Shown: positions 4,330-12,260 of the stretch, piece after piece | Layout of the letters: the number at the start of each line of letters is the position of its first letter | How positions within the stretch are numbered: position 1 is the stretch's first letter | From: Symploca sp. SIO1C2 | Lineage (GTDB): Bacteria > Cyanobacteriota > Cyanobacteriia > Cyanobacteriales > Coleofasciculaceae | DNA length: 55,473 nucleotides | Assembly (NCBI GenBank): GCA_010672925.1 | Contig: JAAHFP010000043.1 | Location: 1 to 55,473, forward strand | Reading direction: 5' to 3' | The notes under the pieces: generated by a model | Databases searched by the model: none | Seen by the model: the letters and a program-made list of their open reading frames with translations, nothing else | Told to the model about the DNA's origin: nothing | Made by a program: the position numbers and the translations under genes

Positions 4330-5010
4330 TTACTCATTACTTATATTTGCAGTGGTGTTTGCTTTTACTTGAGCCTGACTCAGGGTATTTGCCAATTTAT
4401 CGGCAATCCCCTCTACCCAATTCTCATCCTGCTTCGTATAACTGCGAGGGGCATTAGCTCCTAAAATTAGAGCTCCTTGGCTACCCAGAGGTTGGCAAAT
4501 AAGTCCTTGGGTATTTTCTGGCAAGTAGTCAAACTCAATACGCCCTGGATAAATCTTGAGGTCAACCAAGTATACAGCTTTCTGTTTCTCTAGAACCCGC
4601 TTTAAGATCGCTCCTGGTGTCACCTTCTGATTTTTCCCCAAGATTCCTCGGCGTAGTAAAACTTGGCCTTGGTAGAAAACCACAAGCGATCGCGTTACTG
4701 TATTAGTTAGTAAAAGATGGGATGCCCAAGCTAGTTCAGTTTTGAGTTCAGTTGGTAAGGTGGGCTCCAGTTCAAAACCTTCCTCACCAACTAAGTCAAC
4801 TGCCTCAGGGGAGCGGGGTTGTACTCGTTGCCATAGTAAACCCGTCAAAATCAACACCGCACTTAAAATTACTCCCAGAACATCTGCACGAGCCTGAGAG
4901 TCGGTTAGCTGTGGTGTCAGTAAGCGGTTAATTACTAGCAGTACACTGCCTAATCCACCAACAGCAAATGGCAATTGCCGCAGTACGTAGTTTTGATCGG
5001 ATTTAGTCAT
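4330..5010 (-). CDS. CCB2/CCB4-type complex C cofactor assembly protein
   Basis: 226 residues. Two hydrophobic segments lie at the N-terminus (about 12-30 and 43-60), followed by a soluble domain. The pattern matches the cyanobacterial/plastid CCB2-CCB4 family, which helps attach the covalent heme c' (ci) to cytochrome b6 in assembly of the b6f complex in the thylakoid membrane. Recognition rests on overall sequence character (LLTNTVTRSLVVFYQGQVLLRRGI, LGANAPRSYTKQDENWVEGIADKL); there is no catalytic motif. It lies downstream of rpaB on the same strand, with a 155-base spacer of CTACCACCTA and GGGGAATGG repeats between them, so co-transcription is possible but not shown. Confidence 0.75.
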   Translation of the reverse strand: MTKSDQNYVLRQLPFAVGGLGSVLLVINRLLTPQLTDSQARADVLGVILSAVLILTGLLWQRVQPRSPEAVDLVGEEGFELEPTLPTELKTELAWASHLLLTNTVTRSLVVFYQGQVLLRRGILGKNQKVTPGAILKRVLEKQKAVYLVDLKIYPGRIEFDYLPENTQGLICQPLGSQGALILGANAPRSYTKQDENWVEGIADKLANTLSQAQVKANTTANISNE

Positions 5011-7867: not shown

Positions 7868-7896
7868 AATGATTCACTATGAAACCCCTTGATGCT
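7797..7896 (+). repeat. 100-bp direct repeat, copy 1
   Basis: Nearly identical to 8491-8590: about 95 of 100 positions agree by eye. It contains CCGAAGGGTAGGACACAAAGGA and, at its end, the start codon and first six codons of the gene at 7879. A third, partial copy (22 bases) lies at 9598-9619. Confidence 0.85.
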
Positions 7897-8532
7897 AATA
7901 AACCTTACACCTTTAGCCAGATTGGTAAGCTCAATATCGCCTCCGATGACTTGCTGGCAGAATATGGCTACTCGTTTAGTCGCAAGATAATTGAACTGGA
8001 AAGCTACACCGGAACTTTAGATAGACTCACAGAGACTCGACGACGCATCGATGAAATCTTATTTTATATCGATTTGACGAATGAAGCTGCACGTCGGGAA
8101 GTGCTAATTGCACCGGTGATTACAGATATTGTGCATTACACTCATGCTCAGCTACGGATTGAGTACTCGATTAACGTTTCTAATTGGTTACAGGGCAATC
8201 TAGATTATTTTCTCAAAACTCAAACAAACTTGTTAGTCGTAGAAGCGAAACAAGAGGATATCACAAAAGGATTTAATCAGATGGCAGTAGAGATGATTTC
8301 CCTAGATTTGTGGGAAAAAACTCCTGCTGTCGAGTTACAGCCGGTGTTAGTAGGAGCAGTTACTACTGGAGAGTTATGGCGGTTTGGTACTCTCCATCGC
8401 CAGTCAAAACACATTACTCAAGATCTTTCTTTATATCGGGTTCCAGGAGAGTTGGAAATGGTTGAGCGTATTCTCAGTGCTATTTTAATAAACCACAAAG
8501 ACACATTCTCCGAAGGAGTTACCGAAGGGTAG
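7879..8532 (+). CDS. PD-(D/E)XK nuclease-like hypothetical protein
   Basis: 217 residues. The core has a restriction-endonuclease-like pattern: a helical N-terminus (LTETRRRIDEILFYIDLTNEAARREVLIAPVI), then LDYFLK......NLLVVEAKQED, where E-x-K (VEAKQ) fits the conserved catalytic strand, followed by a helix NQMAVEMISLDL and a strand LQPVLVGAVTTGELWRFG. This resembles many cyanobacterial hypothetical proteins related to type I restriction N-terminal domains. The last 13 residues come from repeat copy 2, so the native C-terminus may have been replaced. The ATG lies in repeat copy 1. No methylase or helicase partner is adjacent, so a role in restriction is only inference. Confidence 0.6.
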   Translation: MKPLDANKPYTFSQIGKLNIASDDLLAEYGYSFSRKIIELESYTGTLDRLTETRRRIDEILFYIDLTNEAARREVLIAPVITDIVHYTHAQLRIEYSINVSNWLQGNLDYFLKTQTNLLVVEAKQEDITKGFNQMAVEMISLDLWEKTPAVELQPVLVGAVTTGELWRFGTLHRQSKHITQDLSLYRVPGELEMVERILSAILINHKDTFSEGVTEG

Positions 8533-9628: not shown

Positions 9629-10330
9629 TTAAGGGAACAGAAGTCGTGACCAGTTATCGATGATTTTTAACATTGTATCGCTACTTATGCCTTTGACCCT
9701 TGCTACGATATCGCTCAAAGAGGTAAACTTACTCTGACTGCGCTCTTGTTCAACATTTATAGCAATCTTTTCCGCTCTTTTCTCCCCTAAGCCAGCAGTG
9801 TTTAGTCTGAAAGCTAGTTCAGGTAAGCTGAGGTTGTTAAACATGTCTAAGGGTTGGATTTTTTGAGGAATCTGATTTTTTAGCTCTTGAAGTTTTTTCT
9901 CCAATGCTCCCTGCTGATGTTTTAACTCATTAATGCGATTTTCTATTCTTGATTCAAGATTAGTTAGGCGTGATTCCAGCGCAGTTGAACTAGAGGTAGT
10001 TTGCTCAACTACAGCAGCCTTGGGCTTCCTGAGTAACTCAACTTGTTGTTTGAGAACCTCTTCATTTTCTTCCTCAACTAGAAATGCTCCAATCATTTCG
10101 CCTTTGCGAGGGTCTATCTCTCTTGCCCTAGCAGCGGCGTAATACTCCAAGTCTCCTGCAATTACTTCGTAGGTATCCAAGCTGCTGCGGTGGAGAATGA
10201 CGGGGTTAATTACTCCTTCTGCTTGTAAAATTAACTGGGCAACTTGCTCTAACTCCTCATCTGGGAAATTAGAGCGAGGTACAGTAGAGGTGATTTTCTT
10301 AACGGCAACCAGGGAAGTAGATAATTTCAT
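9629..10330 (-). CDS. ParB-like N-domain protein with coiled coil and HhH
   Basis: 233 residues in three parts. Residues about 8-85 look like a ParB/Srx-fold N-domain (KKITSTVPRSNFPDEELEQVAQLI...GVINPVILHR...YEVIAGDLEYYAAARARE), with GDLEYYAA where classical ParB has GERRYRAA. Residues 110-160 are a coiled coil (LESRLTNLESRIENRINELKHQQGALEKKLQELK). Residues 168-230 are a helix-hairpin-helix-like DNA-binding tail (LNTAGLGEKRAEKIAINVEQ...LSDIVARVKGISSDTMLKIID). There is no classical ParB HTH centre. It lies downstream of the ParA fusion on the same strand, separated by an IS200/IS605 remnant, so the two probably once formed a par-like operon. Confidence 0.7.
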   Translation of the reverse strand: MKLSTSLVAVKKITSTVPRSNFPDEELEQVAQLILQAEGVINPVILHRSSLDTYEVIAGDLEYYAAARAREIDPRKGEMIGAFLVEEENEEVLKQQVELLRKPKAAVVEQTTSSSTALESRLTNLESRIENRINELKHQQGALEKKLQELKNQIPQKIQPLDMFNNLSLPELAFRLNTAGLGEKRAEKIAINVEQERSQSKFTSLSDIVARVKGISSDTMLKIIDNWSRLLFP

Positions 10331-10334
10331 CAGA

Positions 10335-10731
10335 AAATTGGGGAAAGAAACCCCGTCCTAGCCTTCGGCAACGCTACGCGAACTAGGACGGCTTTAAAGT
10401 CTGCTACAATACTAACTACTGGGCATGAAAACCAAACGCTCAGTAACTGCACCTTGAAAACTGGATATATAGGGTTCTGTACAGAACAGCTTGTACAGGT
10501 AAAATATCCAAGCAGCAAGTACCAGTCTTTTAGGACAACGTACCGCAGGGCTTGCGGAATCGGGACTCTGCAATGGGTTGAAAGTCTGTGGACTCTGTGT
10601 AAGACGGTACATGGTTTTTAGCCGTGGTATGCGACGGTGATGGAAGCAGAAACCTAAATCGTGTTAGCGCAGCGGTGCGTAGCACGGTTTAGGAATCCCC
10701 TCGCCTTCAGGCAGGGGAGGATGTCAACTAA
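10335..10731 (+). mobile_element. IS200/IS605-type remnant without a tnpB frame
   Basis: Left side: stem CCGTCCTAG (10353-10361) with CTAGGACGG (10383-10391). Right side: stem CCTAAATCGTG/CACGGTTTAGG (about 10651-10692), then the hairpin CCCCTCGCCTTCAGGCAGGGG (10697-10717) and GATGTCAA. This right end is typical of cyanobacterial TnpB elements. The plus-strand words between 10560 and 10640 resemble a TnpB C-terminus (NGLKVCGLCVR) but stops interrupt the frame. The element lies between the ParA and ParB-like genes. Its exact ends are uncertain. Confidence 0.5.
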
Positions 10732-12260
10732 GCCATACCTATTTTCTCTAAGACTTCTTTGCCTAACAATTCAAATTCTCGTGCTGCTATTGAATCTGGC
10801 TTAAAATCAAGTATTGATAAGGGGTCAGCTATTTCCACCTCTCCAACAGTTTTAGTTTTTTCAGCACATTTTGCCAAATCGTCTCGGTCATAGATTACCG
10901 TGTCTAGTACCTTCAACCCATATCTTTCGGGGATTGCTGCTAGGCGTTTGGGTAAAGTATGTTGTATAAACTTGGCATTGGTGGAGATTTTACAGGCCAG
11001 GACTCCCAAGACTTCGATAGGAGGCTTTCTGAGCATTTTTTTAAAGCTGTTGATGACCTTGATAAATTCTTTGACGTTAATTAATCCCTGATTGGCAAAA
11101 GGCTTTAAATCTGAGGGAATGAGGAGATAGTCGGCAGTGATAATCGCAATCCTGGCATACAAATTTAAAGATGGTGGGGTATCAATTAGCACAATGTCAT
11201 ATTCGTTTTTGACGCTTTCGAGTTTTTGAATCAGCATGGTTTTGCTGGATTCATTCTGATTGAGCTCATTTTCATACCTCATCAAGTTAATGTGAGAAGG
11301 AATCACCTGAATTTCAGGATTACTAAATTGAGAAGCTTGGGCAACTTCTGGTATCGGGTAAAAATCTTCAGATTCTAAAACATGACGGATATTGCAGTCT
11401 TTAATATTGTCAAATTTTTCATCATCAAATTTAACCAAACCGGTGGCAAAAGTAGTGTTGGCTTGGCTATCTAAATCAATAACCAAGACTCTCTTACCTG
11501 TTTTTCTAATAGCGGCAGCTAAATTAACTACAGTTGTAGTTTTACCAACGCCGCCTTTATTGTGGTAAATTGCAATAATTTTCACTTTATTGCGCCTCTG
11601 GGCTTTAGAATTGGGATGGTCAAGGTTTTGCAGAATGTTGTGATGATTGGCTAATGGCTGAGGTTGGGAGGAAGCTGTTGTCGGTACATCCTGTGGGCTT
11701 TCGATAATTCCAGGGAGCAAGATGCTCTCACTACTATTATTGTAAGTGAAATTTGGGTATTCTTTGGATTTTAGTAAACTCTCTCTACCAATTAGAGCTT
11801 TAATTTCATTGATCTTAACCCCAAGTTCTTGACCTAAACACTGAAACGCTAACTGGATATTGGATTCCACTCGGTGGTAAATTCTAATTTCTTTGCCATT
11901 GGTTAGTAGTCCATAGGGCACATTCAAGCTAGTTAAGTAGTGCTTTAGTTTGTGAGTATGATTATTTAAATTTTGATGGGGATGCTTTGCCTCCATCACC
12001 ACCCTTAAAGGCGAGTTGCTATCCAAGACAAATGGGACAATTTGAGTGGCAAAGACTAAAAAATCTAAACGGACACTACCAAAAGTAACTTCTTGATGCC
12101 AGGTATCCGGAGCATAGCCTAAATTCGGCAGGAGATACTCAACAATAAGTTTGGTTTCTACTTCACTTTTTTTACCGCACAGCTCTGGTGAAAAACTCAA
12201 TTGAGGTGATAGGTGGTGGGTGGTAGGTGGTAGGTTTAATCTCCAATCAGATGGAACCAT
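10728..12260 (-). CDS. ParA ATPase fused to N-terminal PD-(D/E)XK nuclease-like domain
   Basis: 510 residues. Residues 25-165 match the pattern of type I restriction subunit R N-terminal (HSDR_N-like) domains: SEVETKLIVEYLLPNLGY (E35), VRLDFLVFA (D66), VVMEAKHP (E90, K92), a plausible D-ExK active site. A linker (166-222) leads to a complete ParA/MinD-type ATPase at 224-505 with deviant Walker A NKGGVGKTT (234-242), VLVIDLDSQAN and YDIVLIDTPPSL. ParA moves DNA cargo with a ParB partner; the ParB-like gene follows at 9629-10330. Residues 9-19 (NLPPTTHHLSP) are written in the CACCTA-type spacer repeat, so the true start may be later. GAGG lies 4 bases before the chosen ATG. Confidence 0.82.
   Translation of the reverse strand: MVPSDWRLNLPPTTHHLSPQLSFSPELCGKKSEVETKLIVEYLLPNLGYAPDTWHQEVTFGSVRLDFLVFATQIVPFVLDSNSPLRVVMEAKHPHQNLNNHTHKLKHYLTSLNVPYGLLTNGKEIRIYHRVESNIQLAFQCLGQELGVKINEIKALIGRESLLKSKEYPNFTYNNSSESILLPGIIESPQDVPTTASSQPQPLANHHNILQNLDHPNSKAQRRNKVKIIAIYHNKGGVGKTTTVVNLAAAIRKTGKRVLVIDLDSQANTTFATGLVKFDDEKFDNIKDCNIRHVLESEDFYPIPEVAQASQFSNPEIQVIPSHINLMRYENELNQNESSKTMLIQKLESVKNEYDIVLIDTPPSLNLYARIAIITADYLLIPSDLKPFANQGLINVKEFIKVINSFKKMLRKPPIEVLGVLACKISTNAKFIQHTLPKRLAAIPERYGLKVLDTVIYDRDDLAKCAEKTKTVGEVEIADPLSILDFKPDSIAAREFELLGKEVLEKIGMA

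What the first reader, a model, noticed from the sequence alone, without database searches (positions are those of the whole stretch)
9629..12260. ParA fused to a restriction-type nuclease domain, with an atypical ParB/HhH partner
The minus-strand protein 10728-12260 joins an HSDR_N-like PD-(D/E)XK fold (E35, D66, E90-x-K92 by eye) to a full ParA ATPase (NKGGVGKTT at 234-242). The downstream gene 9629-10330 has a ParB-like N-domain but a coiled coil and HhH tail instead of the ParB centre. A DNA-moving ATPase carrying its own nuclease, paired with a DNA-binding partner, is an unusual arrangement. It could be a relic plasmid partition system, a DNA-damage or defence device, or a system that positions a cut.
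Basis: partly seen in the sequence, partly recalled or inferred. Interest (0 to 1): 0.75.

Follow-up and report, generated by a model that had tools for sequence, protein, structure and literature searches.

The report
Nuclease-ParA with swappable ParA-ParB cassette
Cyanobacteria carry a two-gene system in which a DNA-positioning motor (ParA) has a DNA-cutting head, and related strains keep the same head while exchanging the motor and its partner as a matched set, which looks more like an immune system in an arms race with viruses than like ordinary DNA partitioning.

Summary
In detail: 10728-12260(-) fuses an HSDR_N-type nuclease domain to a ParA ATPase, and 9629-10330(-) is a ParB_N / coiled-coil / HhH protein. 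It is no local oddity: the head occurs in 62 of 386 sampled cyanobacterial genomes (48 close, 14 distant), in one frame with ParA in 50 of the 55 read. The partner is in 47 of the 48 close genomes. D66, E90 and K92 are invariant in 29 heads down to 22% identity. Unexpectedly, at one chromosomal site in Nostoc and relatives the head follows three of five flanking genes (Mantel r 0.70-0.85), while the ParA part of the same reading frame follows ParB (r=0.93) and not the flanks (r about 0). One strain pair has 94-98% identical head and flanks but 67% and 62% identical ParA and ParB. Four IMG/VR contigs encode a stand-alone ParB_N domain of this family. Box II arginines, the HTH reader and canonical parS are missing. 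Best reading: a chromosomal defence-like conflict system with a constant nuclease effector, an exchangeable ParA-ParB recognition cassette, and possible phage decoys. Function is inferred, not shown.

The parts
11763..12200 (-). HSDR_N-type PD-(D/E)XK nuclease head; E35 at 12156-12158, D66 at 12063-12065, E90 at 11991-11993, K92 at 11985-11987
   Evidence: Pfam HSDR_N_2 above cut-off; profile match at these coordinates; D66, E90, K92 invariant in 29 of 29 across two subfamilies, with E35 in 39 of 39 close orthologues
11592..11756 (-). Low-confidence linker between head and ATPase
   Evidence: pLDDT under 50 at residues 169-223; length varies among orthologues
10731..11585 (-). ParA ATPase domain (residues 226-510), deviant Walker A KGGVGKTT
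   Evidence: AAA_31 189 bits; ten best Foldseek hits are ParA/Soj chains, TM by target 0.80-0.90; in Nostoc and relatives this part goes with the partner gene, not with the head
10331..10727 (.). Dispersed repeat lying between the two genes here
   Evidence: 20 matches in the own genome, itself included; eight others of 170 bp or more at 76-99% identity; same-genus relatives have no such gap (L103 and L104)
9629..10330 (-). Partner gene: ParB_N (about 10031-10330), coiled coil (about 9872-9988), HhH-type tail (about 9638-9853)
12198..12200 (-). Probable true start codon (TTG) of the fusion
   Evidence: most of 24 aligned orthologues start at this column; codon read

Best explanation
A chromosomal, defence-like conflict system of two proteins. 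SHOWN by sequence: the C-terminal ParA half of the fusion and the ParB-like protein form a matched cassette whose alleles are distributed independently of the chromosome around it, while the N-terminal nuclease head goes with the chromosome; four viral contigs carry stand-alone copies of the partner's ParB_N domain. INFERRED: ParA-ATP binds DNA; the ParB-like protein recognises its target through its tail (HhH, or SAP/Rho_N in others) and/or ParB_N and engages ParA; this brings the nuclease heads to invading or aberrant DNA, which is cut. The phage ParB_N domains would act as decoys that occupy ParA or pair with the host partner, and this, or the need to recognise different invaders, would drive the exchange of ParA-ParB alleles around a constant effector.
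For: D66, E90, K92 invariant in 29 of 29 heads, least identity 22%. ParA type and ParB type agree in 72 of 72. Both lineages have the same flank genes where these were recognised. Mantel: head vs GT315 r=0.70, vs ParA294 0.79, vs IleRS 0.85; ParA vs ParB_N 0.93; ParA vs five flank genes -0.03 to 0.05, none significant. Identity between vs within lineages: head .807 vs .788/.833; ParA .554 vs .734/.723; ParB_N .439 vs .683/.654; flank genes no such gap. L148/L143 DNA: 98% upstream 500 bp, 94% head, 67% ParA, 62% ParB, 95-96% downstream. Each close genome has one head-bearing locus, apart from weak unrelated matches. Four viral contigs with a stand-alone ParB_N, phage genes beside it.
Against: No activity is shown. 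The recurring neighbours scanned (9 proteins) are housekeeping, glycosyltransferase, kinase, ParA-like or unknown, not defence genes. PADLOC gave no full match. 9 of 75 close ParA representatives lack the head, with at least four changes forced by supported branches, so ParA-ParB can do without it. Head vs flanks is weak for Zn123 (r=0.35) and absent for HK648 (0.16), and head vs ParA is small but significant (0.14, p=0.001). Of the 8 cross-lineage pairs printed, 3 have both near flanks at 0.90 or more, 2 recover further downstream and 3 differ downstream. Only four viral contigs of 2.9 million, none in INPHARED, none in four cyanobacterial phage-like regions; short ParB-fold proteins are known in phages (PMC12704722, section 7). 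L274 was found only with a lineage-I-based query and L284 only with a lineage-II query, so the 3 to 1 split partly reflects the queries. The named set was picked by head similarity (best 80 of 181).
Confidence: 0.5

Rival explanations
1. A chromosomal positioning (partition-like) system for DNA or another cargo in polyploid cells, in which the nuclease-fold head is a DNA anchor or processes DNA, and alleles diverge to avoid interference with plasmid ParAB pairs.
For: ParA is complete and Soj-like; partner has a ParB fold; recurring neighbours are not defence genes; ParA-ParB occurs without the head.
Against: No good parS in the own genome (one place with 2 mismatches, 2 for the reversed control), no HTH found, Box II arginines replaced; head residues invariant; independence of the flanks is odd for chromosome segregation.
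Confidence: 0.25
2. A DNA repair or DNA-uptake nuclease placed by ParA on damaged, branched or incoming DNA; the tails bind junctions or ends.
For: HhH and SAP/Rho_N tails belong to general DNA- or RNA-binding families; spread over many cyanobacterial families.
Against: Does not predict matched allele exchange or phage copies of ParB_N; patchy (62 of 386).
Confidence: 0.12
3. The phage ParB_N proteins are hijackers rather than inhibitors: they recruit the host ParA or nuclease for phage benefit.
For: They keep the ParB_N domain and lack the tail; hijack of a ParABS system by a mobile element is known for SGI1 (PMC10954446, abstract and outline seen).
Against: SGI1 hijacks through parS-like sites, not a ParB domain; without a DNA-binding tail the domain has no evident way to tether phage DNA.
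Confidence: 0.08
4. Relic plasmid partition genes that acquired a restriction domain by accident.
For: General resemblance of ParA and ParB_N; the window copy has a repeat inserted between the genes.
Against: Conserved across the phylum with invariant active sites; partner absent from 72,556 plasmid records.
Confidence: 0.03

Closest known systems
ParABS partition systems (Soj/Spo0J, plasmid ParA/ParB)
   Same: Deviant Walker ParA ATPase, ParB_N fold, parA-parB gene order
   Different: Nuclease head on ParA, no HTH found in the partner, Box II arginines replaced, no canonical parS in the own genome, alleles independent of the flanks
HsdR-type restriction nuclease N-terminal domains (HSDR_N_2, HSDR_N)
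   Same: Same PD-(D/E)XK head family; on plasmids the head matches proteins annotated N-6 DNA methylase (5 records) and HsdR N-terminal (1 record)
   Different: No helicase, methylase or specificity domain in fusion or partner; the ATPase is ParA
McdAB carboxysome positioning
   Same: ParA-type ATPase plus adaptor in cyanobacteria (recalled; PMC6328274 seen in a search listing with the start of its abstract)
   Different: McdA has no nuclease head and McdB no ParB fold (recalled)
ParB-fold proteins surveyed in PMC12704722
   Same: Short ParB-fold phage proteins; ParB folds joined to new domains
   Different: In the two sections read, no HhH, SAP or ParA-nuclease link is named; only the DUF3850 fusion was reported as consistently beside parA
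PDC-M28B candidate defence protein (PADLOC)
   Same: ParA-like segment (37 bits at residues 214-266)
   Different: No match to the head or partner

Membership tests
ParABS partition system | ParA ATPase with deviant Walker A and catalytic residues | tested here: met
ParABS partition system | ParB N-terminal fold | tested here: met
   39 of 39 members match ParB_N; fold match
ParABS partition system | CTP-binding Box II GERRxRA | tested here: not met
   G-x-[FL]-E-Y-[YH]-A-A in most of 39; the canonical motif is recalled; nucleotide binding itself was not testable
ParABS partition system | Central HTH that reads parS | tested here: not met
   No HTH family for the window partner or among the 25 of 28 families shown for 39 members; a long helix there instead
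ParABS partition system | parS sites | tested here: not met
   No site with 0-1 mismatch to the canonical palindrome in 8.67 Mb; one with 2, reversed control 2. A divergent site cannot be excluded
ParABS partition system | Moves DNA in the cell | not testable with these tools
   needs imaging
Restriction-modification (type I / IIG) | HSDR_N-type nuclease with intact PD-(D/E)XK residues | tested here: met
Restriction-modification (type I / IIG) | Helicase motor, methylase and specificity subunit | tested here: not met
   Not in fusion or partner nor in five window neighbours scanned, nor in nine recurring neighbours elsewhere; more distant genes were not scanned
Known anti-phage systems in PADLOC 2.0.0 | Model covering the fusion or partner | tested here: not met
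   Only partial matches, mainly to P-loop or coiled-coil stretches
Defence system in general | Protects against phage or plasmids | not testable with these tools
   needs an infection or transformation assay

The most novel reading that the evidence does not exclude
A new class of prokaryotic immune system: a ParA ATPase carrying a restriction nuclease, guided by a ParB-like partner. Recognition (ParA plus ParB-like) is an exchangeable multi-allelic cassette swapped inside one reading frame beneath a constant nuclease head, and phages counter it with ParB_N decoys matched to the allele type.
Probability: 0.42. Interest if true: 0.92.

Novelty: new variant of a known kind. Interest (0 to 1): 0.8.

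Why it matters
It ties the ParA/ParB DNA-positioning machinery to DNA cleavage and, through allele exchange and phage copies, to a possible host-virus conflict. It would give a role to a ParB-fold protein kept in many cyanobacterial genomes without an HTH reader, and it offers a directly testable case of modular recognition exchange outside classical restriction-modification.

Tried and rejected
Rejected: chance or local fusion; plasmid origin (one search stopped at 5000 records, none covering 80% of the fusion); inactive head; a common replacement effector beside head-less ParA copies: of 7 genes next upstream of such copies, 6 belong to six unrelated families and 1 has no match (10 proteins scanned in all; one second-upstream gene, L281:5574-6497, is Uma2, a putative restriction endonuclease family). 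Not productive: PDB sequence search with the head profile found 0; the model is poor at residues 63-79 (pLDDT under 50), so the head fold rests on profiles and residues; four regions related to two of the phage contigs hold no ParB_N. Limits: the named set is the best 80 of 181 hits chosen by head similarity; trees are 'quick' trees; viral scans need exact short peptide patterns, so absence of the head is weak evidence. Two ancient tandem copies with differential loss and gene conversion of the head could mimic allele exchange; several identity classes make this less simple but do not exclude it. Literature searches for a ParA-nuclease system or ParB decoy; none of the papers listed was seen to describe it. 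Papers: PMC12704722 (outline, passages, sections 7 and 10), PMC1913061 (passages), PMC12839542 (passages), PMC10954446 (abstract and outline); all others search listing only.
Full report
What is there. The 510-residue ORF 10728-12260(-) has an HSDR_N_2 match at residues 37-134 (30.2 bits, cut-off 25) and a ParA ATPase from about residue 226 (AAA_31 189 bits); the 233-residue ORF 9629-10330(-) has a ParB_N domain (36 bits, cut-off 26.3). Most of 24 aligned orthologues begin at the column of the TTG at 12198-12200, so the first 20 residues of the ORF are probably not part of the protein. The host is an 8.67-Mb genome; its same-genus relatives G004 and G005 agree in contig length and position with records of Symploca sp. 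SIO2E6 and SIO2C1.

Conservation of the fusion. A head profile matches 67 of 386 genomes drawn from the phylum; by my reading of the rows, 48 are close (E below 1e-40), 14 are a distant subfamily, and 5 are partial matches to unrelated proteins. Of the 48 close genomes I read 42: in 38 the head and ParA share one frame, in the other 4 the frame is split, broken or near a contig end; of the 14 distant ones I read 13: 12 in one frame, 1 split. In 80 named loci, 76 have head and ParA in one frame of over 400 residues and 76 have the partner; the four without it lie within 0.9 kb of the end of the held DNA. In 74 of those 76 the partner starts between 22 bases before and 6 bases after the end of the ParA frame; the two others are at -70 and +235. 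Over the 386 genomes the partner (E below 1e-25) is in 47 of 48 genomes with a close head and in 5 of 338 others; the one miss lies at a contig end. In the distant subfamily, 11 of 11 loci have a conserved 219-318-residue gene directly downstream; of six scanned, four match ParB_N below the cut-off (17.6-21.4 bits) and four match Rho_N above it. So the two-gene plan seems shared by two subfamilies.

Active site. D66, E90 and K92 (also F67, G117, N121, G122) are invariant in 29 of 29 heads that fall to 22% identity with the window; E33, E35, Q56, R64, D66, E90, K92 and N121 are invariant in 39 of 39 close orthologues. All 29 match HSDR_N_2 at E up to 0.01. The model of the fusion (mean pLDDT 77) gives a confident ParA and a partly confident head, poor at residues 63-79, so the fold claim rests on profiles and residues. 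A PDB sequence search with the head profile found nothing.

Partner. The model (mean pLDDT 85, pTM 0.44) matches ParB and Noc structures best. All 39 members match ParB_N, but the Box II arginines (GERRxRA, recalled) are replaced, mostly by G-x-[FL]-E-Y-Y-A-A. The tail changes: DUF655 13, HHH_6 10, Rho_N 6, SAP 3 and HHH_3 2 of 39 at E up to 0.01. Mean pairwise identity is 55% for ParB_N and 31% for the rest. The own genome has no other ParB_N above the cut-off and no good parS.

Allele exchange. A tree of 76 named fusions splits into two lineages of 38 with 16 and 20 Nostoc; Nostoc needs 14 changes, 11 forced by supported branches. The two lineages share flank genes: a glycosyltransferase (GT315) downstream in 18 lineage I and 22 lineage II loci, a second ParA-like gene (ParA294) upstream in 16 and 15, a zinc-ribbon gene in 12 and 15, a histidine kinase in 10 and 12, an isoleucyl-tRNA synthetase-like gene in 13 and 9. 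Mean protein identity between lineages against within I and II is .807 against .788/.833 for the head.554 against .734/.723 for ParA.439 against .683/.654 for ParB_N, with no such gap for the neighbours. ParA type and ParB type agree in 72 of 72. Distance matrices: head against GT315 r=0.70 (n=40), ParA294 0.79 (n=31), IleRS 0.85 (n=22), zinc ribbon 0.35 (n=27, p=0.05), histidine kinase 0.16 (n=22, not significant); ParA against ParB_N 0.93 (n=73); ParA against the five neighbours -0.03 to 0.05, none significant; head against ParA 0.14 (n=76, small but p=0.001). Nostoc favosum CHAB5714 (L148) against N. mirabile CHAB5784 (L143), in DNA: 98% over 500 bp upstream, 94% head, 67% ParA, 62% ParB, 95-96% over 900 bp downstream. 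Of the 8 cross-lineage pairs printed there, all have the first 500 bp upstream at 0.90 or more; 3 (L148/L143, L109/L116, L109/L126) also have both downstream windows at 0.90 or more, 2 recover in the second window, and 3 differ downstream, so the right flank is not always shared. In the three pairs profiled, identity falls gradually from the end of the head into ParA and returns within about 130 bp of the end of parB, in one with gaps after it. Among 273 pairs with head DNA identity of at least 0.90, 198 have ParA below 0.75 and 23 at least 0.90, while GT315 is 91.9% identical both in cross-lineage pairs (n=98) and in same-lineage pairs (n=95). Several identity classes suggest more than two alleles. 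Each close genome has one head-bearing locus apart from weak unrelated matches, so these behave as alleles. The set was picked by head similarity (best 80 of 181), which truncates head variation, but the head still tracks three of five neighbours.

Head-less copies. Nine of 75 close ParA representatives lack the head and are scattered in the tree, with at least four changes forced; seven of the nine have the partner next to them. The tree cannot tell gain from loss; scattered loss is the simpler reading. Genes next upstream of seven such loci share no common effector.

Phage copies. Seven scans of 2.9 million viral contigs were run. Partner queries found four contigs with a stand-alone ORF of 100-110 residues that ends just after ParB_N: L270/L272, L271/L273, L274 and L284. 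L271's copy is 79% identical to the Chrysosporum bergii partner. Three are nearer to lineage I (means .53.58.44 against .37.38.37; the last by a small margin) and one to lineage II (.45 against .38); L274 was found only with a lineage-I-based query and L284 only with a lineage-II query. Phage genes near them: terminase subunits, RecT and head-tail joining (L270); endolysin and thymidylate synthase (L271) and head morphogenesis (L273); baseplate wedge, the only match among 10 other L274 proteins scanned; polymerase processivity factor and tail assembly (L284). Two of the four lack one residue and the Arg of the PRSxF loop, two keep the Arg; Arg19 is kept in 154 of 184 host ORFs, redundant loci included. 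The head was not found in viral contigs with one pattern scan, nor a family-like ParA (best 42% over 53 residues). INPHARED phages and PLSDB plasmids have no partner match. Relatives of the L272 terminase occur in 6 of 195, and of the L273 portal-like protein in 1 of 195 genomes of the window's order; four such regions hold no ParB_N.

Reading. Matched exchange of ParA and ParB under a constant nuclease, plus phage copies of the ParB_N domain, is the pattern expected of a host-virus conflict locus; restriction systems with exchangeable specificity are the nearest analogy in working (recalled), not in membership. Against this stand the lack of defence genes among the neighbours scanned, the small number of phage copies, the head-less forms, and no activity data. 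I give 0.5 to the defence-like reading and 0.25 to a partition or positioning role.

Known work. PMC12704722 (sections 7 and 10 read) surveys the ParB fold, reports short phage ParB-fold proteins, and finds only the DUF3850 fusion consistently beside parA. In searches no listed paper was seen to describe a ParA-nuclease fusion of this kind.

Noticed in passing
window 10331-10727: A dispersed repeat (20 matches in the own genome, itself included; best other copy 99% over 345 bp) lies between the two genes, which are 4 bp apart or overlapping in the two same-genus relatives.
   Followed up: partly
window 7879-8532 (+): A 217-residue protein matching PADLOC's PD_DExK CRISPR-associated model (91.9 bits), two genes after RadA; a homologue was seen at 2 of the other loci held, L164 and L172.
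   Followed up: partly
L106:4897-5799, L279:3014-5076, G000:C124:108108-109670: A second ParA-like gene (about 300 residues) lies upstream of the operon in 31 of 76 named loci (median about 0.5 kb), sometimes two in tandem; it shows no lineage split.
   Followed up: partly
L062:2285-3163 / L152:4758-5636: Anabaena sp. 4-3 has a head-less ParA of the same family just upstream of the fused operon, a possible tandem donor.
   Followed up: no
L225 (G213:C124): An operon in a genome of the same phylum but outside the window's class, with head, ParA and partner in overlapping frames.
   Followed up: no
L095:2287-3060: A stand-alone HSDR_N_2 protein of 257 residues (34.7 bits) without ParA.
   Followed up: no
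L273:3166-4935: A phage head-morphogenesis protein with what looks by eye like ComEA-type HhH motifs near its C-terminus (sequence; head match).
   Followed up: no
L281:5574-6497 (G005:C40): A Uma2 (putative restriction endonuclease) gene is second upstream of a head-less ParA-ParB pair.
   Followed up: no
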